This document shows, in pieces, positions 9,499 through 19,401 of a DNA stretch of 64,000 nucleotides; position 1 is the first letter of the stretch; each line of letters begins with the position of its first letter. The translations under genes and the position numbers were made by a program. Source of the stretch: Gammaproteobacteria bacterium. Lineage in GTDB: Bacteria; Pseudomonadota; Gammaproteobacteria; Tenderiales; Tenderiaceae. Under the pieces are notes generated by a model. That model saw nothing but the letters and a program-made list of their open reading frames with translations. It made no database searches and was not told where the DNA came from. The stretch lies in contig JAKFXL010000016.1 of NCBI GenBank assembly GCA_021731365.1, positions 62,001 through 126,000 of the forward strand, read 5' to 3'.

Positions 9499-9981
9499 AT
9501 GGCTGTAGAGATCGAACGTAAGTTTCTGGTGACCAACGATAGCTGGCGCGCCGCCGTGAAAAAGAGTGGTGACTACCGCCAGGGTTATCTTGCCGCCATG
9601 GACGGCAACGCCTCGGTGCGGGTGCGTATCGCTGATAATCACGCCAACCTCAACATCAAGAGCATGACTCTGGGCGTGACACGTCAGGAGTATGAATACG
9701 AGATCCCGCTGCAGGATGCACGTGAGATGCTGGCCAACCTCTGCGTCGGCCCGGTAATCGAGAAGACCCGTCATCTGGTCGACTACGGCAAGCACACCTG
9801 GGAGATTGATGTCTTTGAAGGGGATAACGCCGGTCTGATTGTGGCGGAGATTGAACTCTCCACCGAGGACGAGCCGTTTGAACTGCCGCTGTGGGCGGGC
9901 AAGGAGGTGTCGGATGATGAACGTTACTACAACGTCTGTCTGGCGCAGCACCCCTACAAAGAGTGGAAGGATTCGCTCTGA
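9499..9981 (+). CDS. CYTH-domain protein (triphosphate tunnel metalloenzyme family)
   Basis: Compact 160-residue protein made of one CYTH domain. The N-terminal signature ExExK is present as EIERKFLV (Glu4, Glu6, Lys8), followed by alternating charged residues typical of the eight-stranded triphosphate tunnel (RVRI, NLNIKS, EYEYEI, EIDVFEGDNAGLIVAEIELS). Related bacterial enzymes, such as E. coli YgiF and Nitrosomonas NeuTTM, hydrolyse inorganic triphosphate; others are adenylate cyclases or thiamine triphosphatases, and the substrate cannot be told from sequence. Its 3' end overlaps the next gene by 19 bases, so it appears to lead the peptide-transport/nagZ operon. Confidence 0.9.
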   Translation: MAVEIERKFLVTNDSWRAAVKKSGDYRQGYLAAMDGNASVRVRIADNHANLNIKSMTLGVTRQEYEYEIPLQDAREMLANLCVGPVIEKTRHLVDYGKHTWEIDVFEGDNAGLIVAEIELSTEDEPFELPLWAGKEVSDDERYYNVCLAQHPYKEWKDSL

Positions 9982-11459
9982 AACTTTCGCGCTTCACCAT
10001 TCTGGCACTGTTGCTGGCAGTGTTCGGCATCACCGCATGCAGCAAGGCGCCGGACGGTGCGTTGCGTTTTGGTCTCGCAAAAGCGCCCATCACCCTTGAT
10101 CCACGTTTTGCTACCGATGCGGTTTCAGCACGTATCAATCGGCTGATCTATCAGAGCCTGATCGATTTTGATGAGAGCTATCGAGTCATCCCGGCGCTGG
10201 CGCAGTGGCAGCAGGTTTCGCCGCGCCACTACCGTTTCAAGTTGCGTGATAGCGCCACGTTTCACGACGGCAGCCCGCTGACAGCGGCGGACATCAAGGC
10301 CACCTACGATTCTATTCTCGACCCCGCCATCAACTCTCCCCATCGTGCCGGATTCGACATGATCGAGACCATTCAGGTGGTGGATAACAACACCGTTGAT
10401 TTCATGCTGACTAAACCGGACCTGCTCTTTCCCGGTCGTCTGGTGATGGGCATCATGCCCGCTGCCGCGCTCAAGGCAAAACAGCTGTTCAATCGCCAGC
10501 CGCTGGGTAGCGGTCCGTTTGCCTTTGATGGCTGGCCGGAGGAGGGCACGTTGCACCTTAAACGTCTGGTCGATCGTCAGCGCTTCAGTTTTATCGCAGT
10601 GGAGAACCCCACCGTGCGGGTGCTTAAGCTAATGCGTGGCGAGATCGACATGTTGCAGAACGACATCCCGTCGGAGATGGTCACCTATCTGGAAAAACAG
10701 GAGGCCATCCAGGTGATCAAGGGGCGTGGTTCCAACTTCACCTATCTCGGTTTTAATCTTGAAGATGCAGAGACCGGTAATTTAAAGCTGCGTCAGGCCA
10801 TCGCCTATGCCCTCGACCGCGATACCATCATTCGCTACGTGATGGGTGGCGCCGCCACCCCTGCCAGTGCGCTGTTACCGCCCGACCACTGGGCGGGTAC
10901 TGATCTGCCGCTCTATGGCTATGATCCGGCACGTGCCCGCCTGTTGTTAAAAGAGGCGGGCTTTACACAAGCCAAACGTCCGCACTTGGTTTACAAAACC
11001 TCTAGCGATCCGTTTCGTATTCGGCTGGCCACCATCATTCAGCAGCAGCTCACCGATATCGGCATTGATGTGGAGATGCGCAGTTACGACTGGGGTACCT
11101 TCTATGGCGATATCAAGGCGGGGCGCTTCCAGATGTTCAGCCTCAGCTGGGTCGGCATCAAAACTCCCGACATCTTCCGTTACGCCTTTCACAGCAGCGC
11201 CGTGCCGCCGGAGGGCAGCAATCGTGGTCGCTACAGCGATAGCATCACCGACGCGCTGATTGAGGCGGCCGAAGCGGCACCAACGCTGGAGCAGCAGGCC
11301 GAGGAGTACAAAAAAGTTCAGGCGCGGCTGTTAGAACAGCTTCCTTACGTGCCGTTGTGGTATGAAGACCACATCTTTGCCGCGCGTAAAAATATCAGCG
11401 GCTATACGGTCGCCCGTGATGGCAACTACGATGGGTTGACCCATGTCACACGCCACTGA
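9963..11459 (+). CDS. Peptide ABC transporter substrate-binding lipoprotein (SBP family 5)
   Basis: Periplasmic binding protein of the DppA/OppA/MppA type (498 residues). The GTG at 9963 gives a hydrophobic signal ending in the lipobox ITAC, with Cys26 as lipidation site. The mature part has family-5 blocks: ALAQWQ, YRFKLRDSATFHDGSPLTAADIK (split here as it is long: YRFKLRDSATFHDG then SPLTAADI), GSGPFAF, LRQAIAYALDR and a C-terminal PLWYED. It is followed, with a 17-base overlap, by a YkuD enzyme, and then by two permeases and nagZ. This context suggests it binds murein peptides or muropeptides, as MppA and YepA do; that is inference. Confidence 0.88.
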   Translation: MEGFALKLSRFTILALLLAVFGITACSKAPDGALRFGLAKAPITLDPRFATDAVSARINRLIYQSLIDFDESYRVIPALAQWQQVSPRHYRFKLRDSATFHDGSPLTAADIKATYDSILDPAINSPHRAGFDMIETIQVVDNNTVDFMLTKPDLLFPGRLVMGIMPAAALKAKQLFNRQPLGSGPFAFDGWPEEGTLHLKRLVDRQRFSFIAVENPTVRVLKLMRGEIDMLQNDIPSEMVTYLEKQEAIQVIKGRGSNFTYLGFNLEDAETGNLKLRQAIAYALDRDTIIRYVMGGAATPASALLPPDHWAGTDLPLYGYDPARARLLLKEAGFTQAKRPHLVYKTSSDPFRIRLATIIQQQLTDIGIDVEMRSYDWGTFYGDIKAGRFQMFSLSWVGIKTPDIFRYAFHSSAVPPEGSNRGRYSDSITDALIEAAEAAPTLEQQAEEYKKVQARLLEQLPYVPLWYEDHIFAARKNISGYTVARDGNYDGLTHVTRH

Positions 11460-11940
11460 TCAATATCTGATCGACATCAACCTCACCACGCAGCGGTTGC
11501 AGCTGTTGCGCGGTGACGAAGTGGTGATGGATGTGTTGGTCTCGAGTGCCAAAAATGGTCCTGGCGAAATAGCCAACAGTCAGTGCACCCCACGCGGTTG
11601 GCACCAGGTCCGTGCCAAGATCGGTGGCGGCAGTGAGATCAATACCATCTTTGTTGGCCGTCGCCCCACCGGCGAGATCTACACCCCAGCGCTGCATCAA
11701 CAACATCCCAAACGTGATTGGATACTCACCCGCATCCTCTGGCTCAGTGGTTTGGAGCCGGGCTGTAATCGTCTCGGCAACGTTGATACCATGCGCCGTT
11801 ACATCTATATCCACGGCACACCCGATAGTGTGGAGATGGGCCGTCCCGGTTCGCACGGCTGTATTCGCATGCGTAATAGTGAACTGATCGAGCTGTTTGA
11901 TCGTGTGCCGGCCGGTACACGGGTACTGATTCATGAGTAA
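11443..11940 (+). CDS. YkuD-family enzyme without signal peptide, probable cytoplasmic L,D-carboxypeptidase
   Basis: A 165-residue YkuD (L,D-transpeptidase fold) protein. The catalytic signature is complete: His124 in YIHGTPD and the SHGCIRM block with His138 and Cys140. There is no signal peptide or membrane anchor, unlike periplasmic L,D-transpeptidases, so the enzyme should act in the cytoplasm. Family precedent is ElsL (LdtK) of Acinetobacter, a cytoplasmic YkuD enzyme that removes the terminal D-alanine of murein tetrapeptides during recycling and replaces LdcA. Its position between a peptide-binding protein, two permeases and nagZ fits that role. The reaction is inferred from context. 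Confidence 0.85.
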   Translation: MSHATDQYLIDINLTTQRLQLLRGDEVVMDVLVSSAKNGPGEIANSQCTPRGWHQVRAKIGGGSEINTIFVGRRPTGEIYTPALHQQHPKRDWILTRILWLSGLEPGCNRLGNVDTMRRYIYIHGTPDSVEMGRPGSHGCIRMRNSELIELFDRVPAGTRVLIHE

Positions 11941-11946
11941 GCTACT

Positions 11947-12873
11947 GTGAAATTTCTGCTCTCACGCCTCGCCAGCGCGCTCATCGTTGTGATGGGCGTT
12001 TCGGCATTGGTATTCCTGTTCTTATATATGGTGCCCGGCGATCCGGTGGAGGTGATGCTGGGTGAGTCGGCGCAGCCTGCCGACCGTGAGGCGCTGCGCC
12101 GTGCACTGGGATTGGATCAGCCACTGCTGACGCAGATGGGCCACTACTACTACAACCTGCTGCATCTGGATCTGGGCAACTCACTCTATTCACAACGCCC
12201 CATCAGCGAGATGTTGCTGGAGCGTATGCCAGCAACGGTTGAGCTGGCGTTGGCATCGCTGCTGGTAGCGGTGCTGATCGCCTTCCCGATGGGGGTGCTG
12301 GCGGCGGTGCGCAAGGACACACCTTGGGATCAGGGGGCGATGGGGCTGTCGCTGGTGGGCATATCGGTGCCCAATTTTCTGATGGGGCCGATTCTGATCC
12401 TGGTCTTTTCGTTGTGGCTGGGGTGGTTTCCGGTGAGTGGCCGCGACGGTTTGATCTCGCTAATCCTGCCCGCCATCACTCTCGGCACGGCCATGTCGTC
12501 GATCCTGTCACGCATGGTGCGCGCTACTGTGCTGGAGACGTTGAATGAGGATTACATCCGCACCGCCCGCGCCAAGGGGTTGAGTGAACGGCTGGTGATC
12601 TGGCGTCACGCGCTGCGTAATGCGCTGTTGCCGGTGATCACGCTGTTGGGTTTGCAGCTGGGGGTATTGCTGGGCGGCGCGGTGATCACCGAGGTGGTCT
12701 TCTCCTGGCCGGGGCTCGGTTCATTGACGATTGAATCGATCCAGCGTCGTGACTATCCGGTAGTGCAGGCGTGTGTCTTGTTGATCAGTCTGGCCTATGT
12801 GCTGGTCAATACGTTGACCGATCTGGTCTACGGCTGGCTCGATCCGCGCGTGCGGCTGGAGGGCGGGCGATGA
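11947..12873 (+). CDS. Peptide ABC transporter permease, DppB/OppB type
   Basis: Inner-membrane permease of 308 residues starting at GTG 11947, six bases after the YkuD stop. It has an N-terminal membrane helix (LASALIVVMGVSALVFLFL), the MVPGDPVEVMLG block typical of DppB, and the EAA loop that contacts the ATPase (RTARAKGLSERLVIWRHALR, about residues 199-218). The C-terminus carries VFSWPGLGSL. It overlaps the next permease by four bases. Together they form the channel of a binding-protein-dependent peptide importer, but no ATPase gene lies in this operon, so DppD/DppF-type partners would have to come from elsewhere in the genome. Confidence 0.93.
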   Translation: MKFLLSRLASALIVVMGVSALVFLFLYMVPGDPVEVMLGESAQPADREALRRALGLDQPLLTQMGHYYYNLLHLDLGNSLYSQRPISEMLLERMPATVELALASLLVAVLIAFPMGVLAAVRKDTPWDQGAMGLSLVGISVPNFLMGPILILVFSLWLGWFPVSGRDGLISLILPAITLGTAMSSILSRMVRATVLETLNEDYIRTARAKGLSERLVIWRHALRNALLPVITLLGLQLGVLLGGAVITEVVFSWPGLGSLTIESIQRRDYPVVQACVLLISLAYVLVNTLTDLVYGWLDPRVRLEGGR

Positions 12874-13685
12874 TCCGTAGTGTGATTCGTTATGGTTGGC
12901 CAGCGGCCATCATGCTGCTCTGGGCACTGTTTGCTGTTGGCGGCGGTTGGCTCGGACTTGACCCGAACCACATCGAACTGTCTAAGATTCTGCTGGCGCC
13001 GGGCAGTGACGCCTGGCTCGGGTACGACGATCTCGGTCGACCGCTGTGGGATCGGCTAGTAGCCGGGGCGCAGACCTCGTTTCTGGTGGCGGTGCTGGTG
13101 GTGCTGATCTCGACCATTGTCGGCACCGCCATCGGCAGCATCAGTGCCTATCTGGGCGGTTGGTGGGATCACGTTATCGTACGCATCATCGATATCTTCC
13201 TCGCCTTCCCCGGCATCCTGCTGGCGATTGCGCTGGCGGGACTGCTTGGGCCGGGCATCAACAACGTCATCATCGCCCTAGGCGTGGTGGGGTGGGTCGG
13301 CTTTGCACGGCTGGCGCGCGCCCAGGTGCTGACCATCAAACATCGGGAACATGTGCAGGCGGCGCAGGCACTCGGCACACCACCGCTGATGATCATCTGG
13401 CGTCACATCATCCCGCTGATCATGGCGCCGCTGATTGTGGAGGCGACCTTTGCCGTGGCCGGTGCGGTTATCTCCGAAGCGGGCCTTTCATTTTTAGGGC
13501 TGGGTGTGCAGCCGCCTGAATCCTCATGGGGCAGCATGATCCGCGACGGCGCTCGATATATGTTGGTGGCGCCGCACATGGTGCTGGTGCCGGGCGCCGC
13601 GTTGATGCTGGTGGTGCTGGCGGTGAACCTGTTGGGTGATCGGCTGCGTGATCGCCTGGATGTAAGAACGAGACCACGGGAGTAG
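12870..13685 (+). CDS. Peptide ABC transporter permease, DppC/OppC type
   Basis: Second channel subunit, 271 residues. The frame is open upstream, but the ATG at 12870 overlaps the stop of the DppB-type gene (ATGA) and gives the family N-terminus, so it is chosen. Visible features are an N-terminal membrane helix (WPAAIMLLWALFAVGGG), the LGYDDLGRPLWDRL segment characteristic of OppC/DppC, several hydrophobic helices, and the EAA-type loop EHVQAAQALGTPPLMIIWRH. The C-terminal part has SEAGLSFLGLGVQPP. It ends three bases before nagZ, which ties nutrient uptake to peptidoglycan-sugar processing in one transcript. Confidence 0.93.
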   Translation: MIRSVIRYGWPAAIMLLWALFAVGGGWLGLDPNHIELSKILLAPGSDAWLGYDDLGRPLWDRLVAGAQTSFLVAVLVVLISTIVGTAIGSISAYLGGWWDHVIVRIIDIFLAFPGILLAIALAGLLGPGINNVIIALGVVGWVGFARLARAQVLTIKHREHVQAAQALGTPPLMIIWRHIIPLIMAPLIVEATFAVAGAVISEAGLSFLGLGVQPPESSWGSMIRDGARYMLVAPHMVLVPGAALMLVVLAVNLLGDRLRDRLDVRTRPRE

Positions 13686-13687
13686 AC

Positions 13688-14767
13688 ATGTCATTAGGTC
13701 CAGTCATGGTGGGTCTGTCGGGTTTGACACTGACTGCGGAAGAGCGCGAGATGCTGCAACATCCGATGGTGGGGGCGGTGATCCTCTTTAGTCGTAATTT
13801 TGAAAATACCTTGCAGGTCAAAGCATTGATTGATGAAGTTCATGCACTGCGGCAACCTAAGTTACTTGTGGCGGTGGACCACGAAGGGGGCAGGGTGCAG
13901 CGTTTCCGCAGCGGTTTTACCCGTCTGCCTGCGGTGCGCAACTTCGGCCAGCTCTACGACCAGGACCCCAAACGCGCCAAACGTATCTGCGAAACAGCCG
14001 GTTGGTTGATGGCGGTGGAGCTGCGCGCCGTCGGTGTTGATTTCAGCTTTGCGCCGGTGATCGATCTCGATTATGGCGTCAGCACGGTGATTGGCGACCG
14101 CGCTTTTCATCGTGATCCGCAGGCGGTGGCGGAACTGACCCAGAGTTACATCAAGGGCATGCAACGTGCCGGTATGGCCGCCACTGCCAAACACTTTCCC
14201 GGCCACGGCGCGGTGGAGGTCGATACCCATCTCGGCATCGCCCGCGATGAACGCCGATTGGTGGATATCGAGAGTGAAGATCTGATTCCGTTCGAGCGGC
14301 TGATCCACAACGGCCTGGCCGGAGTGATGGCGGCCCATGTGATCTACCCGCAGGTGGATGACAAACCGGCGGGTTTTTCACACTTCTGGTTGCAGCGGAT
14401 ATTGCGCCAACAGTTGCAGTTTCAGGGGGTGATTTTTAGCGATGACCTGTTGATGGAGGGGGCCGCCGTTGCCGGTGATGTCTGCGAGCGTGCCGCCGCC
14501 GCGCTGACCGCCGGGTGCGACATGGCGCTGGTCTGTAGCGACTTTAACGCCATCTGCCGGACGTTGGATCATCTGAAAAAGTTCGACAATGCCCAATGCA
14601 CTCGCTCGGCTCGCGGGGCAGGCTCTCCCGCCTCACATCTGCGCCTGGCACGTATGCATGGCCGCCATCCCATCAGCCGTGATCAACTCCACAATGACCC
14701 ACAGTGGCATCAGGCGCTGCATGTATTGGGGCCGTGGCTGGAGGCGAAGCCGCTCGATCTGTTGTAG
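13688..14767 (+). CDS. nagZ: Beta-N-acetylhexosaminidase NagZ
   Basis: Cytoplasmic glycoside hydrolase family 3 enzyme that removes GlcNAc from GlcNAc-1,6-anhydroMurNAc (peptides) during peptidoglycan recycling; its product can induce AmpC beta-lactamase through AmpR in some species. The 359 residues show the NagZ blocks VDHEGGRVQRF, AKHFPGHG with the following DTHLGIARD catalytic-loop region, and the nucleophile segment FSDDLLMEGA (Asp252/Asp253). There is no signal peptide. It sits at the end of a packed operon with a peptide importer and a cytoplasmic YkuD enzyme; GGGAG precedes the ATG. The tail after residue 297 is unusually Arg/Ser/Ala rich but in frame. Confidence 0.95.
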   Translation: MSLGPVMVGLSGLTLTAEEREMLQHPMVGAVILFSRNFENTLQVKALIDEVHALRQPKLLVAVDHEGGRVQRFRSGFTRLPAVRNFGQLYDQDPKRAKRICETAGWLMAVELRAVGVDFSFAPVIDLDYGVSTVIGDRAFHRDPQAVAELTQSYIKGMQRAGMAATAKHFPGHGAVEVDTHLGIARDERRLVDIESEDLIPFERLIHNGLAGVMAAHVIYPQVDDKPAGFSHFWLQRILRQQLQFQGVIFSDDLLMEGAAVAGDVCERAAAALTAGCDMALVCSDFNAICRTLDHLKKFDNAQCTRSARGAGSPASHLRLARMHGRHPISRDQLHNDPQWHQALHVLGPWLEAKPLDLL

Positions 14768-14801: not shown

Positions 14802-15899
14802 TTGTTAGAGCAAATAACCACTGGACTTGATCAATACCTCGGCTGGGGCGGTTGGACAATCCAGGTATTTGTGGTGGTGTTCCTGACGCTGTTGGCGGAC
14901 TTCATTCAGAAGCGGGTGTTGATGCGCATCAAGCGCCAGCTGGAGAAGACCTCTAACCTCTGGGACGACGCCCTGATCGAGTCGCTGCGTAAACCACTCA
15001 CGGTGCTGATCTGGGTGGTGGGCATCACCTTTGCCGCCAGTATTATTGAGCAGGAGACTGGCGCGGCGATCTTCAGCGCCATTACCCCGATGCGTGATAT
15101 GGGCGTCATCGTGGTGATTGCCTGGTTCCTGCTGCGTTTTGTTCACAACGCCCAACGCAACATCATCAATCATCGTTCAGCGTCTGGAGATGTTGATCAC
15201 ACTACCGCCGACGCCATTGGCAAACTGATGCGGCTCTCCATCATCATCACAGCCTCGTTGGTGGCGTTGCAGACTATGGGTTACAGCATCTCCGGGGTGC
15301 TCGCCTTTGGTGGTGTGGGGGGCATTGCCGTCGGTTTTGCTGCCAAGGATCTGCTGGCCAACTTTTTTGGTGGTTTGACGATCTACCTCGACAGACCCTT
15401 TGCAGTGGGTGATTGGGTGCGTTCACCTGATCGTGAGATCGAAGGCACGGTGGAGAAGATTGGCTGGCGCCTAACCTCTATCCGCACCTTCGACAAACGG
15501 CCGCTCTACGTGCCCAACTCGGTCTTTACCACCATTGCGCTGGAGAACCCCTCGCGCATGAGTAACCGCCGGATTTACGAGACCATCGGCATTCGTTATG
15601 ACGACGTCGACAAGATGGCGGCGATCACGGACGAGATCAAAACCATGCTGCTCAATGATGCCGATATCGATCAGCAGCAGACCCTGATGGTGAACTTCAA
15701 CAGCTTTGGGCCGTCGTCGCTCGACTTTTTTATCTATACCTTTACTCGTACGACAGTCTGGATAGAGTTTCACGAGATCAAACATCGCATTCTGTTGCAG
15801 GTCCACGAGATCATCGCTAGCCATGGTGCAGAGGTGGCGTTTCCAACGTCGACATTGCATGTGCCGGATGGTGTCAGGGTTGAGAGTATCGGTAGTTAA
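14802..15899 (+). CDS. MscS-family mechanosensitive ion channel
   Basis: Inner-membrane channel that opens on membrane tension to release solutes during hypo-osmotic shock. The 365-residue protein starts at TTG 14802 behind AAGGAGAT. It has about four predicted membrane segments; the last is the pore-lining TM3, glycine/alanine-rich as GVLAFGGVGGIAVGFAAKD (about 166-184), followed by the MscS beta-domain motif LANFFGGLTIYLDRPFAVGDWV (given as LANFFGG, then RPFAVGDWV). The cytoplasmic vestibule domain follows. The extra N-terminal helices resemble the YnaI-type group more than minimal MscS. It follows nagZ by 34 bases and may be in the same transcript. Confidence 0.92.
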   Translation: MLEQITTGLDQYLGWGGWTIQVFVVVFLTLLADFIQKRVLMRIKRQLEKTSNLWDDALIESLRKPLTVLIWVVGITFAASIIEQETGAAIFSAITPMRDMGVIVVIAWFLLRFVHNAQRNIINHRSASGDVDHTTADAIGKLMRLSIIITASLVALQTMGYSISGVLAFGGVGGIAVGFAAKDLLANFFGGLTIYLDRPFAVGDWVRSPDREIEGTVEKIGWRLTSIRTFDKRPLYVPNSVFTTIALENPSRMSNRRIYETIGIRYDDVDKMAAITDEIKTMLLNDADIDQQQTLMVNFNSFGPSSLDFFIYTFTRTTVWIEFHEIKHRILLQVHEIIASHGAEVAFPTSTLHVPDGVRVESIGS

Positions 15900-15929: not shown

Positions 15930-17006
15930 ATGGGTTTGAAAGCTGTATTCAGTGGTGTCGCTTTGTTAATGGTCGGCATGGTGGGCAGTGTGGCAGTGCA
16001 GGCCGCCGATCTGCCGTGGACCTTTCAGCCACTGCCAGCGGTGGCTGAAGCGCCCAAGGATAATCCAAGCACCAAGGAGAAGTTGGCCCTGGGTAAACAG
16101 CTCTTTTTTGACGCACGGCTCTCCATCACCGGCACCCACTCCTGTAATAGTTGCCACAACCTCTCGGCAGGTGGCGAGGATGGTCGCGCCCAGCCCGTGG
16201 GTGTCTATGGCCGTACAGGTAAGCGCGGTACCCAGACTATTTGGAACGCCGCTTTTCATACCGTTTATAACTGGGATGGCAGCGCCAATACCCTGGAAGA
16301 GCAGGCTCAAAAACATATTCTCGATCCTAATATTATGGGCATGCCCGATGCCGAGGCGGTGGTGGGTCGTATCAACGCCATTCCCGGATATCGCCAGCAG
16401 TTTGAAAAAATTTTTGGCAAGGAGGCGGTTAACTTTAAGACGATTGCCATGGCACTCTCCAGCTACGAACGTACGTTGACCACACCCAACAGCCCCTTTG
16501 ACCGTTATTTGCGCGGTGATGACAAGGCCATTTCCGCCGCCGCCAAACGTGGCATACAGGAGTTCATCGATGTTCGCTGTGCCTCTTGTCACTTCTGGAT
16601 CAACCTGGCGGGACCAATTCCTGGGTTGGCGTTACAACAGGGTGAAGGCTTTTATGAACTTTTCCCCAACTATCCCGGCACCGATTACGAAACCCGCTAC
16701 AGCCTCGCGGATGACCTTGGGCGTGTTTACTTCTCGCAGGAACCGACCGATACCCGTATGTGGCGTATGCCGTCACTGCGTAATATCGCCATCACAGCGC
16801 CATATTTCCATAACGGTGTCGTTAAAACTTTGGATGAGGCGGTACGGGTGATGGCCAAGACCCAACTCAGACGAGAGGTAACGGAACAGCAGGTGAGTGA
16901 CATTGTGGCCTTTCTTAATACACTCACCGGTGAATTCCCTGAACAGACCCTGCCACGCCTACCTGAGACCCCTAATCGGACTGCGGTAGCGGGCCACGAC
17001 CACTAA
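15930..17006 (+). CDS. Di-haem cytochrome c peroxidase
   Basis: Periplasmic enzyme that reduces hydrogen peroxide with electrons from c-type cytochromes. A signal peptide (residues 1-25, ending VQA) is followed by two covalent haem sites, CNSCH at 72-76 and CASCH at 217-221, typical of the CcpA/MauG superfamily. The 358-residue length and the RNIAITAPYFHNG segment with its distal Met/His region fit bacterial cytochrome c peroxidase rather than MauG. The ATG has a strong ribosome site, AAGGAGG. The DsrE-like gene follows after 18 bases. Confidence 0.92.
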   Translation: MGLKAVFSGVALLMVGMVGSVAVQAADLPWTFQPLPAVAEAPKDNPSTKEKLALGKQLFFDARLSITGTHSCNSCHNLSAGGEDGRAQPVGVYGRTGKRGTQTIWNAAFHTVYNWDGSANTLEEQAQKHILDPNIMGMPDAEAVVGRINAIPGYRQQFEKIFGKEAVNFKTIAMALSSYERTLTTPNSPFDRYLRGDDKAISAAAKRGIQEFIDVRCASCHFWINLAGPIPGLALQQGEGFYELFPNYPGTDYETRYSLADDLGRVYFSQEPTDTRMWRMPSLRNIAITAPYFHNGVVKTLDEAVRVMAKTQLRREVTEQQVSDIVAFLNTLTGEFPEQTLPRLPETPNRTAVAGHDH

Positions 17007-18051: not shown

Positions 18052-19401
18052 ATGACGCAGAGTCCGCAAGAGGCTCCTGTCGCTCCGCCAGTGGTTGGCT
18101 TTTGGGAGGCCTTCCGTTTTTGGCTCAAACTTGGCTTTATCAGTTTTGGCGGTCCGGCAGGGCAGATCGCCATTATGCATGCTGAGCTGGTGGAGCGGCG
18201 GCACTGGATCAGCGAGAAGCGGTTTCTCCATGCACTCAATTTCTGCATGGTGTTGCCAGGCCCAGAGGCACAACAGCTTGCCATTTACATAGGCTGGTTG
18301 ATGCACCGTACACGGGGTGGCATTGTGGCCGGTACGCTGTTTGTGCTCCCTTCACTCTTTATATTGATTGCGCTGTCGTGGATCTATATTGCCTTTGGGG
18401 ATTCGCCGCTGGTGGCGGGGCTGTTTTATGGCATCAAACCCGCCGTAACGGCCATTGTTGTGCAGGCGGCACATCGTATTGGTTCGCGAGCCTTAAAAAG
18501 TGGTCTGTTATGGGCGGTGGCGGTGGCCGCTTTTGTGGCGCTATTTGCGTTGCACATACCGTTCCCGCTGATTATTGCGGTGGCTGCGTTAGTGGGGTAT
18601 CTCGGTGGCCGTTTTGCGCCGGAAAAATTTAAGACGGGGGGTGGCCACGGCAAAGCGGCCAGCTCCGTTGGTCCGGCGCTGATTGATGATGAGACACCCA
18701 CGCCGGAACATGCCCGTTTCTCCCGCTCGCGGCTGATATCTGTGGTGGCGGTGGGTATGCTGTTGTGGTCAATGCCCATGGGGCTGCTGTTTATGCTCAA
18801 TGGTTGGCAAGATACCCTGACCCAGATGGGGTGGTTCTTCACCAAAGCAGCACTGCTTACCTTTGGTGGCGCCTACGCGGTATTGCCTTATGTCTACCAG
18901 GGGGCCGTTGATCACTATGGCTGGTTGACGGCACCACAGATGATCGATGGGCTGGCGTTGGGCGAGACAACACCGGGACCACTGATCATGGTGGTTGCGT
19001 TTGTGGGGTTTATTGGTGGTTATACCAATGGGCTGTTGGGTCCGGACGCGCTGTTTATGGCCGGGGCGATAGCGGCGGCTGTGGTGACCTGGTTTACCTT
19101 TTTGCCCTCGTTTATTTTTATCCTTGTGGGCGGGCCGCTGGTTGAATCAACCCATGGCAACCTTAAATTTACTGCACCACTCACCGCTATTACCGCCGCT
19201 GTGGTGGGGGCTATTTTTAATCTGGCACTCTTTTTTGGTTACCATGTGATGTGGCCACAGGGCTTTGGGGCCGGGTTTGATTGGGGGGCTGCGGCCATAG
19301 CCGTGGCGGCGGCAGTGGCCCTGTTTCGTTTCAAACGCAATGTCATTGAGGTGATTGCAGTCGCTGCCGTCACCGGATTGTTGCTAACAACAGTTGTTTA
19401 A
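18052..19401 (+). CDS. chrA: Chromate transporter ChrA (CHR family, long form)
   Basis: Inner-membrane protein of 449 residues with two homologous CHR halves, as in the long-chain ChrA proteins that expel chromate. The N-half carries FISFGGPAGQIAIMH and the conserved MVLPGPEAQQLAIYIGW; the C-half has LLTFGGAYAVLPYVYQG and the matching LGETTPGPLIMVVAFVG motif. A charged linker near residues 195-225 joins the halves. AAGGAA precedes the ATG. It sits between hpt and the MTI phosphorylase gene without functional relation to either; insertion into an older salvage pair is likely. Chromate export is the family activity; sulphate or other oxyanion transport has not been excluded. Confidence 0.92.
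   Translation: MTQSPQEAPVAPPVVGFWEAFRFWLKLGFISFGGPAGQIAIMHAELVERRHWISEKRFLHALNFCMVLPGPEAQQLAIYIGWLMHRTRGGIVAGTLFVLPSLFILIALSWIYIAFGDSPLVAGLFYGIKPAVTAIVVQAAHRIGSRALKSGLLWAVAVAAFVALFALHIPFPLIIAVAALVGYLGGRFAPEKFKTGGGHGKAASSVGPALIDDETPTPEHARFSRSRLISVVAVGMLLWSMPMGLLFMLNGWQDTLTQMGWFFTKAALLTFGGAYAVLPYVYQGAVDHYGWLTAPQMIDGLALGETTPGPLIMVVAFVGFIGGYTNGLLGPDALFMAGAIAAAVVTWFTFLPSFIFILVGGPLVESTHGNLKFTAPLTAITAAVVGAIFNLALFFGYHVMWPQGFGAGFDWGAAAIAVAAAVALFRFKRNVIEVIAVAAVTGLLLTTVV

What the first reader, a model, noticed from the sequence alone, without database searches (positions are those of the whole stretch)
9499..14767. Probable muropeptide import and recycling operon: CYTH - SBP - cytoplasmic YkuD - two permeases - NagZ
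Seen: six co-directional genes with overlaps or gaps of a few bases; an MppA/DppA-type lipoprotein, a YkuD enzyme with intact His/Cys triad but no signal peptide, DppB and DppC permeases, and NagZ. Known: NagZ acts on imported anhydro-muropeptides; the cytoplasmic YkuD enzyme ElsL of Acinetobacter is an L,D-carboxypeptidase of recycling; MppA and YepA-YejBEF take up murein peptides. Inferred: this operon imports murein fragments, trims the tetrapeptide and removes GlcNAc, as an alternative to AmpG/LdcA. A CYTH triphosphatase in the same unit has no known place in this pathway.
Basis: partly seen in the sequence, partly recalled or inferred. Interest (0 to 1): 0.78.

Follow-up and report, generated by a model that had tools for sequence, protein, structure and literature searches.

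The report
ABC importer replacing AmpG muropeptide permease
This six-gene cluster codes for two predicted cell-wall-fragment trimming enzymes beside most of an ABC importer, and because its binding-protein gene occurs in 30 of 42 surveyed relatives with no detectable AmpG (the usual fragment importer) but in only 27 of 143 with an AmpG-type gene, it is likely a stand-in for AmpG that would let these bacteria recycle their own wall.

Summary
The operon is real and is not a one-genome oddity. In 185 genomes of the window's class, mostly one per family, the substrate-binding lipoprotein (SBP) occurs in 57 and the operon's own DppB in 56, together in 55. The SBP lies directly beside ElsL in 39 of 57 and DppB beside NagZ in 39 of 56. 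The SBP is found in 30 of 42 genomes with no AmpG hit but 27 of 143 with one (p 5e-10). Those 30 AmpG-less genomes keep AmpD (29), AnmK (26), Mpl (27) and NagZ (29); the 12 AmpG-less genomes without the SBP have mostly lost them. So this likely imports (anhydro)muropeptides in place of AmpG, with ElsL in place of LdcA. Residues argue against an MppA-like free-peptide binder: the Asp shared by OppA, MppA and DppA is Ile or Val in 120 of 120 homologues. Weak points: no ATPase in the operon, a weak AmpG-family protein in this genome, 22 carriers with a clear AmpG, no biochemistry. The described ABC muropeptide importer, YepA-YejBEF, is alphaproteobacterial (PMC9790009).

The parts
9499..9981 (+). 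CYTH (triphosphate tunnel) protein, 160 aa; role in the pathway unknown
   Evidence: Pfam CYTH 66.7 bits. Upstream of ElsL in 16 of 52 genome-contig loci with enough flank.
9963..11459 (+). Substrate-binding lipoprotein (SBP_bac_5), 498 aa from GTG; a CTG at 9978 is an alternative start
11157..11159 (+). SBP Ile399, at the position of the Asp shared by OppA, MppA and DppA
   Evidence: Aligned to E. coli DppA D436, MppA D439, OppA D445; Ile in 111 and Val in 9 of 120 homologues.
11443..11940 (+). ElsL-class leaderless YkuD protein, predicted cytoplasmic L,D-carboxypeptidase, 165 aa
   Evidence: NCBIfam ElsL E 3.5e-57; catalytic motif.
11812..11862 (+). Catalytic His124 codon (11812-11814) to S-H-G-C codons (11851-11862) of the YkuD protein
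   Evidence: Sequence; His124, Ser137, Gly139 and Cys140 invariant in the 22 aligned rows; His138 is Arg in three of them.
11947..12873 (+). DppB-type ABC permease, 308 aa
   Evidence: Opp2B 370 bits, cut-off 350; ortholog in 56 of 185 genomes, 55 of them with the SBP.
12870..13685 (+). DppC-type ABC permease, 271 aa
   Evidence: Opp2C best, 271 bits, below its cut-off of 300.
13688..14767 (+). NagZ beta-N-acetylhexosaminidase, 359 aa
   Evidence: PRK05337 466 bits, cut-off 207.
14802..15899 (+). MscS-type mechanosensitive channel; conserved neighbour, possibly in the same transcript
   Evidence: Pfam; follows NagZ in many related loci.

Best explanation
The operon likely encodes the specific half of an ABC importer for cell-wall muropeptides that would stand in for AmpG, next to the genes for the two predicted cytoplasmic enzymes that would then trim the cargo. 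Shown by sequence and survey: the gene order, the families, the co-inheritance of SBP with DppB, the linkage to ElsL and NagZ, and the AmpG/recycling-enzyme pattern. Inferred: (1) the lipoprotein SBP captures (GlcNAc-)anhMurNAc-peptides in the periplasm; (2) DppB-DppC carry them in, powered by a shared ATPase from another Opp/Yej-type system (in this genome a Yej-like operon on another contig carries two tandem ATPases); (3) NagZ removes GlcNAc and ElsL removes the terminal D-Ala; (4) AmpD, AnmK and Mpl, encoded elsewhere in this genome, complete recycling. The role of CYTH is unknown.
For: Same 185 genomes in every class search. SBP 57, operon DppB 56, both 55; the two SBP-only genomes are 75% and 78% complete. 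SBP within 400 bp of ElsL in 39 of 57; DppB within 2.5 kb of NagZ in 39 of 56; SBP-ElsL-DppB-NagZ all linked in 19 of 57. SBP in 30 of 42 genomes without an AmpG hit and 27 of 143 with one, Fisher p 5e-10; in the 162 genomes that are at least 90% complete and at most 5% contaminated, 23 of 33 vs 24 of 129, p 5e-8. Among AmpG-less genomes, SBP+ (30) keep AmpD 29, AnmK 26, Mpl 27, NagZ 29; SBP- (12) keep 4, 3, 4, 4. Of 127 genomes with AnmK, AmpD and Mpl, 3 have neither AmpG nor SBP, and one of these has DppB 2.7 kb from NagZ. Control: Opp/Dpp-type ATPases show no link with AmpG (p 0.36). Correlated-evolution likelihood test on an Mpl tree of 120 genomes: LR 31.4 and 39.4, p 3e-6 and 6e-8. SBP lacks the OppA/MppA/DppA Asp in 120 of 120. 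ElsL is a proven L,D-carboxypeptidase of recycling in Acinetobacter (PMC8649774, abstract and two sections read).
Against: 22 of 57 SBP+ genomes also have an AmpG over the cut-off and 5 more a weak one, this genome among them (182.6 bits, cut-off 350, next to an LdtE-like YkuD gene). No ATPase in the operon; sharing is a guess, and 4 of 57 carriers showed no oligo_HPY ATPase even at a loose threshold (two of these assemblies are under 80% complete and one is 87%). DppB scores over the cut-off of a model named 'nickel ABC transporter permease'. The independent-pairs tests on supported branches are not significant in any of four forms (SBP pairs: AmpG over the cut-off opposite in 4.6, same in 0.1 of 9, median p 0.06; any AmpG hit 4.7 and 1.0, p 0.22; AmpG pairs, SBP opposite in 4.3 of 7, p 0.125, and 4.4 of 8, p 0.375). 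Some rates in the likelihood test ran to their upper bound. In 18 of 57 carriers SBP and ElsL are not seen adjacent.
Confidence: 0.66

Rival explanations
1. It imports free murein tri- or tetrapeptides, as MppA-OppBCDF does in E. coli, for direct reuse by Mpl after ElsL trimming; NagZ is only a neighbour.
For: ElsL and Mpl would suffice for that; the SBP belongs to the peptide/nickel superfamily; Mpl is retained in 27 of 30 AmpG-less carriers.
Against: The Asp conserved in OppA, MppA and DppA is Ile or Val in 120 of 120 homologues. AnmK, AmpD and NagZ, which act on sugar-bearing fragments, are also retained in AmpG-less carriers. DppB lies beside NagZ in 39 of 56.
Confidence: 0.15
2. It is an ordinary peptide, glutathione or nickel importer that sits by chance in a conserved housekeeping neighbourhood (in relatives rlmD-CYTH-ElsL-NagZ-HPRT).
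For: DppB passes the 'nickel' Opp2B cut-off; nearest solved SBP folds are GsiB, NikZ and DppA; the neighbourhood exists without the importer.
Against: Chance linkage does not explain why the SBP is enriched in AmpG-less genomes that keep recycling enzymes, nor why DppB stays with NagZ in genomes where SBP-ElsL lies elsewhere (for example G061, G111, G052). SBP scores 160 bits against GsiB (cut-off 594) and 126 against NikA (cut-off 393).
Confidence: 0.11
3. It scavenges wall fragments of other bacteria as food and is not part of self-recycling.
For: The SBP is a lipoprotein; most homologues have Ser, Gly, Ala or Thr after the Cys, which by the recalled enterobacterial sorting rule points to the outer membrane.
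Against: The link with AmpG absence plus retention of Mpl and AnmK fits closing the cell's own loop.
Confidence: 0.05

Closest known systems
YepA-YejBEF muropeptide importer (Agrobacterium; PMC9790009, abstract and three sections read)
   Same: An ABC importer whose SBP is of the same broad superfamily (recalled) stands in for AmpG in genomes that keep other recycling enzymes; SBP and ATPase are not in one operon.
   Different: YepA is reported as exclusive to Alphaproteobacteria and uses the YejB/E permeases; here the permeases are DppBC/Opp2-type (YejB model 134 bits, cut-off 445) and sit with ElsL and NagZ. A. tumefaciens lacks Mpl and L,D-carboxypeptidase orthologs (PMC9790009); here Mpl and an ElsL-class gene are present.
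AmpG
   Same: Inferred cargo (anhydromuropeptides) and pathway position.
   Different: AmpG is an MFS permease; this is an ABC system.
ElsL of Acinetobacter baumannii (PMC8649774)
   Same: Leaderless YkuD domain, His/Cys motif, best family model.
   Different: Below the curated cut-off of that narrow model; here encoded with an importer.
MppA-OppBCDF of E. coli
   Same: SBP_bac_5 protein for murein material, sharing transport parts with another SBP (E. coli annotation).
   Different: MppA keeps the Asp (D439) that this SBP family lacks.
GsiABCD / NikZ / DppABCDF
   Same: Fold or family of SBP and permeases.
   Different: gsiABCD and dppABCDF encode their own ATPases; here none.

Membership tests
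ElsL-class L,D-carboxypeptidase | YkuD domain without signal peptide | tested here: met
   YkuD PF03734 84 bits; no hydrophobic N-terminus, by eye.
ElsL-class L,D-carboxypeptidase | Catalytic His ... S-H-G-C motif | tested here: met
   H124, S137-H138-G139-C140.
ElsL-class L,D-carboxypeptidase | Score over the NCBIfam ElsL model | tested here: inconclusive
   Best model by far (E 3.5e-57) but 192.7 bits against a cut-off of 270 of an 'exception' model.
ElsL-class L,D-carboxypeptidase | Removes terminal D-Ala from tetrapeptides | not testable with these tools
   Needs an assay.
NagZ | Score over the curated NagZ model | tested here: met
   466 vs 207 bits.
YepA-YejBEF | YejB/YejE-type permeases | tested here: not met
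   Microcin C (Yej) permease models score 134 bits (cut-off 445) for DppB and 79 bits (cut-off 439) for DppC; Opp2 models fit far better.
YepA-YejBEF | YejA/YepA-type SBP | tested here: inconclusive
   No Yej model among the NCBIfam hits; E. coli YejA could only be aligned distantly; YepA itself was not compared.
MppA-type murein peptide SBP | Conserved Asp shared with OppA/DppA (its binding of the peptide amine is recalled) | tested here: not met
   Ile399; Ile/Val in 120 of 120 homologues.
DppABCDF-type complete importer | ATPase gene(s) in the operon | tested here: not met
   None among the genes annotated between 8414 and 19401.
AmpG functional replacement | Enriched in AmpG-less genomes that keep downstream enzymes | tested here: met
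   30 of 42 vs 27 of 143; enzymes retained.
AmpG functional replacement | Window genome itself lacks AmpG | tested here: inconclusive
   Only a weak AmpG-family hit, 182.6 bits (cut-off 350); G128, of the same family, has none at E<=1e-15.

The most novel reading that the evidence does not exclude
A muropeptide importer distinct from both AmpG and YepA-YejBEF: a gammaproteobacterial ABC system built of a lipoprotein SBP and a DppBC pair without an ATPase of its own, which borrows the ATPase of a Yej/Opp-type transporter, has taken over from AmpG in many lineages, and is genetically coupled to ElsL and NagZ so that import and trimming are made together.
Probability: 0.45. Interest if true: 0.85.

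Novelty: new variant of a known kind. Interest (0 to 1): 0.74.

Why it matters
For AmpG-less Gammaproteobacteria that keep the rest of wall recycling, no importer was named in the papers listed or read here; this gives a specific, testable candidate. It would show that replacing AmpG by an ABC importer happened outside the Alphaproteobacteria with different parts, would correct automatic labels such as 'nickel permease' and 'L,D-transpeptidase YbiS' on these genes, and raises the question of importers that share an ATPase.

Tried and rejected
First Mpl tree: seven rows were shadow frames, seen as a very long branch; rebuilt by homology. First ElsL count (137) included 38 lower-scoring YkuD genomes; I read 14 lower-scoring proteins and about half have hydrophobic N-termini by eye, the rest do not clearly. 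ElsL-S66 exclusion was therefore re-counted with 99 close ElsL: 3 both, p 1.2e-4; the tree-pair tests for it were too weak and were run only on the first, faulty tree. MppA-like reading of the SBP: rejected. Idea that a dedicated ATPase is always nearby: not found. SBP model (mean pLDDT 77.7) and fold searches place the superfamily but not the ligand. CYTH: a search for papers joining it to NagZ showed none in the ten listed of 16. Paper searches showed no report of a gammaproteobacterial ABC replacement for AmpG in the listings seen (20 of 32, 2 of 2, 1 of 1, 15 of 48, 7 of 7 and 12 of 92 papers); subscription journals are mostly not held. PMC13046382 was searched for terms only and added nothing.
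Full report
What is there. Six overlapping or nearly touching genes run CYTH, SBP, YkuD, DppB, DppC, NagZ at 9499-14767, followed 34 bases later by an MscS-type channel. The genome (3.41 Mb, 83 contigs) belongs to the same family as G128, whose 3,656,958-base contig has the length of the one that one search lists for a protein of Candidatus Tenderia electrophaga; NCBI places that species in Tenderiales, Gammaproteobacteria.

The enzymes. The YkuD protein is leaderless and fits the ElsL model best (E 3.5e-57, below that narrow model's cut-off). ElsL of Acinetobacter is a cytoplasmic L,D-carboxypeptidase of recycling, with orthologs mainly in Gamma- and Betaproteobacteria (PMC8649774, abstract, section on orthologs and discussion read). 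NagZ is a clear member of its family. Activity of both is predicted, not shown.

The importer. The SBP is a lipoprotein by its lipobox (Cys26; Cys in 119 of 120 homologues) of the DppA/GsiB/NikZ kind. Aligned with E. coli OppA, MppA and DppA, fetched by annotation, it lacks their shared Asp: Ile in 111 and Val in 9 of 120 homologues. That this Asp holds the free peptide amine is recalled knowledge; the title of a DppA structure with D436R fits. A cargo whose peptide is capped by muramic acid has no free amine there, so the loss fits muropeptides, though GsiB (Ser) and YejA (Met) lack the Asp too. DppB scores above the cut-off of a model named for nickel, which shows how such genes get misnamed. 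No ATPase gene was found in the operon or its annotated neighbours. In this genome a Yej-like operon on contig C13 carries two tandem ATPases, 576 and 668 residues; G128 and G071 show the same. Either could power DppBC; this is not shown. An oligo_HPY-type ATPase was found in 48 of 57 SBP carriers and 71 of 128 others at E<=1e-6; a looser search of 20 chosen genomes, including the nine carriers without one, raised the carriers to 53 of 57. ATPases without that domain were not searched for.

Linkage across genomes. In 80 named-collection loci around ElsL relatives (the best 80 of at least 595 candidates), 52 had enough flank on both sides: NagZ followed within 4.2 kb in 24, CYTH preceded in 16, the SBP in 10, and SBP-DppBC-NagZ all together in 5; 23 showed none of these neighbours. 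ElsL-NagZ, often with CYTH and followed by MscS or HPRT, is thus a broader arrangement, to which SBP and DppBC are optionally added. SBP and ElsL adjoin in 39 of 57, DppB and NagZ in 39 of 56, all four linked in 19. The window's series CYTH-SBP-YkuD-DppB-DppC-NagZ-MscS recurs in G077, there preceded by rlmD and with about 500 bases between YkuD and DppB. In five DppB carriers none of these adjacencies was seen: in three of them (G116, G032, G177) SBP and DppBC sit on different contigs, in G075 the SBP is 2.9 kb from ElsL, and in G064 DppB is 2.7 kb from NagZ.

The AmpG test. AmpG-family hits (TIGR00901, E<=1e-15) occur in 143 of 185, over the cut-off in 126. SBP is in 30 of 42 genomes with no hit and 27 of 143 with one (odds ratio 0.09, p 5e-10); with the stricter AmpG definition 35 of 59 vs 22 of 126 (p 2e-8). 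In the 162 genomes that are at least 90% complete and at most 5% contaminated the effect stays: 23 of 33 vs 24 of 129 (p 5e-8), strict 28 of 49 vs 19 of 113 (p 5e-7). Opp/Dpp-type ATPases, a control for carrying such transporters, show no link with AmpG (p 0.36). The 30 AmpG-less carriers keep AmpD in 29, AnmK in 26, Mpl in 27 and NagZ in 29; the 12 AmpG-less non-carriers keep 4, 3, 4 and 4. Retention of enzymes that act on the sugar-bearing fragments argues for import of anhydromuropeptides, not only peptides. Of 127 genomes with AnmK, AmpD and Mpl, 101 have AmpG, 45 the SBP, 22 both and 3 neither; one of the three, G064, has DppB 2.7 kb from NagZ.

Relatedness. A tree was made of 120 Mpl proteins: 26 carriers without AmpG, 4 with weak and 20 with clear AmpG, and 70 non-carriers. 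They were taken from the rows printed out of 159 genomes with Mpl; about 30 printed rows, all non-carriers with AmpG over the cut-off, were left out by me, which weakens the association if anything. A test of correlated evolution rejects independence (LR 31.4 and 39.4, 4 df), with some fitted rates at their upper bound. Restricted to supported branches the pairs tests have too few pairs and none is significant: for pairs differing in SBP, AmpG over the cut-off goes opposite in 4.6 and the same way in 0.1 of 9 (median p 0.06), any AmpG hit 4.7 and 1.0 (p 0.22); for pairs differing in AmpG, SBP goes opposite in 4.3 of 7 (p 0.125) and 4.4 of 8 (p 0.375). One gene tree is a poor species tree, so this supports but does not settle the point.

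ElsL and LdcA. S66 (LdcA-type) proteins are in 21 of 185; 3 of these also have an ElsL-like hit. With ElsL limited to the 99 close members, 3 of 99 vs 18 of 86 have S66 (p 1.2e-4). The window genome has no S66 hit at E<=1e-5, but has AnmK, AmpD and Mpl elsewhere.

Limits. The window genome holds a weak AmpG-family protein (182.6 bits; cut-off 350) beside an LdtE-like YkuD protein with a SPOR domain, so it may not be fully AmpG-less; G128, of its own family, has no hit. Twenty-two carriers have a clear AmpG. Nothing here is biochemical.

Known systems. YepA-YejBEF imports muropeptides in Agrobacterium, and its authors report YepA as exclusive to Alphaproteobacteria (PMC9790009, abstract and three sections read). 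A 2024 review cites it for the ABC route (PMC11555704, passages), and a 2026 review names OppBCDF-MppA for peptides and DppBCDF-YkfD for Gram-positives (PMC13204101, passages). I found no report of the present system in the listings seen of the held library. I file it as a new variant of a known kind, an ABC muropeptide importer, and not as YepA-YejBEF.

Noticed in passing
Own genome G000 contig C13:1166-9277 (L114): A Yej-like operon (617-aa SBP, two long permeases) ends in two tandem double-domain ATPases of 576 and 668 residues; G128 and G071 have the same, the other genomes read show one or none there. The second may serve the window's ATPase-less DppBC.
   Followed up: partly
Own genome G000 contig C44:25729-27911 (L115:5682-7963): A weak AmpG-family MFS protein lies beside an LdtE-like YkuD protein with a C-terminal SPOR domain.
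   Followed up: partly
window 9499-9981: The CYTH protein sits just upstream of ElsL or the SBP in many genomes (16 of 52 loci), with and without the importer; no role in recycling is known to me.
   Followed up: partly
P0121-P0240, SBP residue after the lipobox Cys: Ser 53, Gly 22, Ala 22, Thr 13, Asn 4, Asp 4, Glu 1 of 119; by the recalled enterobacterial +2 rule most would go to the outer membrane, odd for an ABC importer's binding protein.
   Followed up: no
38 of the 185 surveyed genomes (for example L310, L314, L315): Lower-scoring ElsL-like YkuD proteins; about half of the 14 read have signal-like N-termini by eye, so some look like exported paralogs easily miscounted as ElsL.
   Followed up: partly
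window 15930-17006 and 18052-19401: A MauG-type di-haem peroxidase and a chromate transporter family protein follow the operon; the peroxidase recurs near NagZ in a few relatives.
   Followed up: no
L006 (record title 'Halobacteria archaeon'): A contig titled as an archaeon carries the SBP-ElsL pair at 59 and 67% identity, probably a mis-binned or mislabelled bacterial contig.
   Followed up: no
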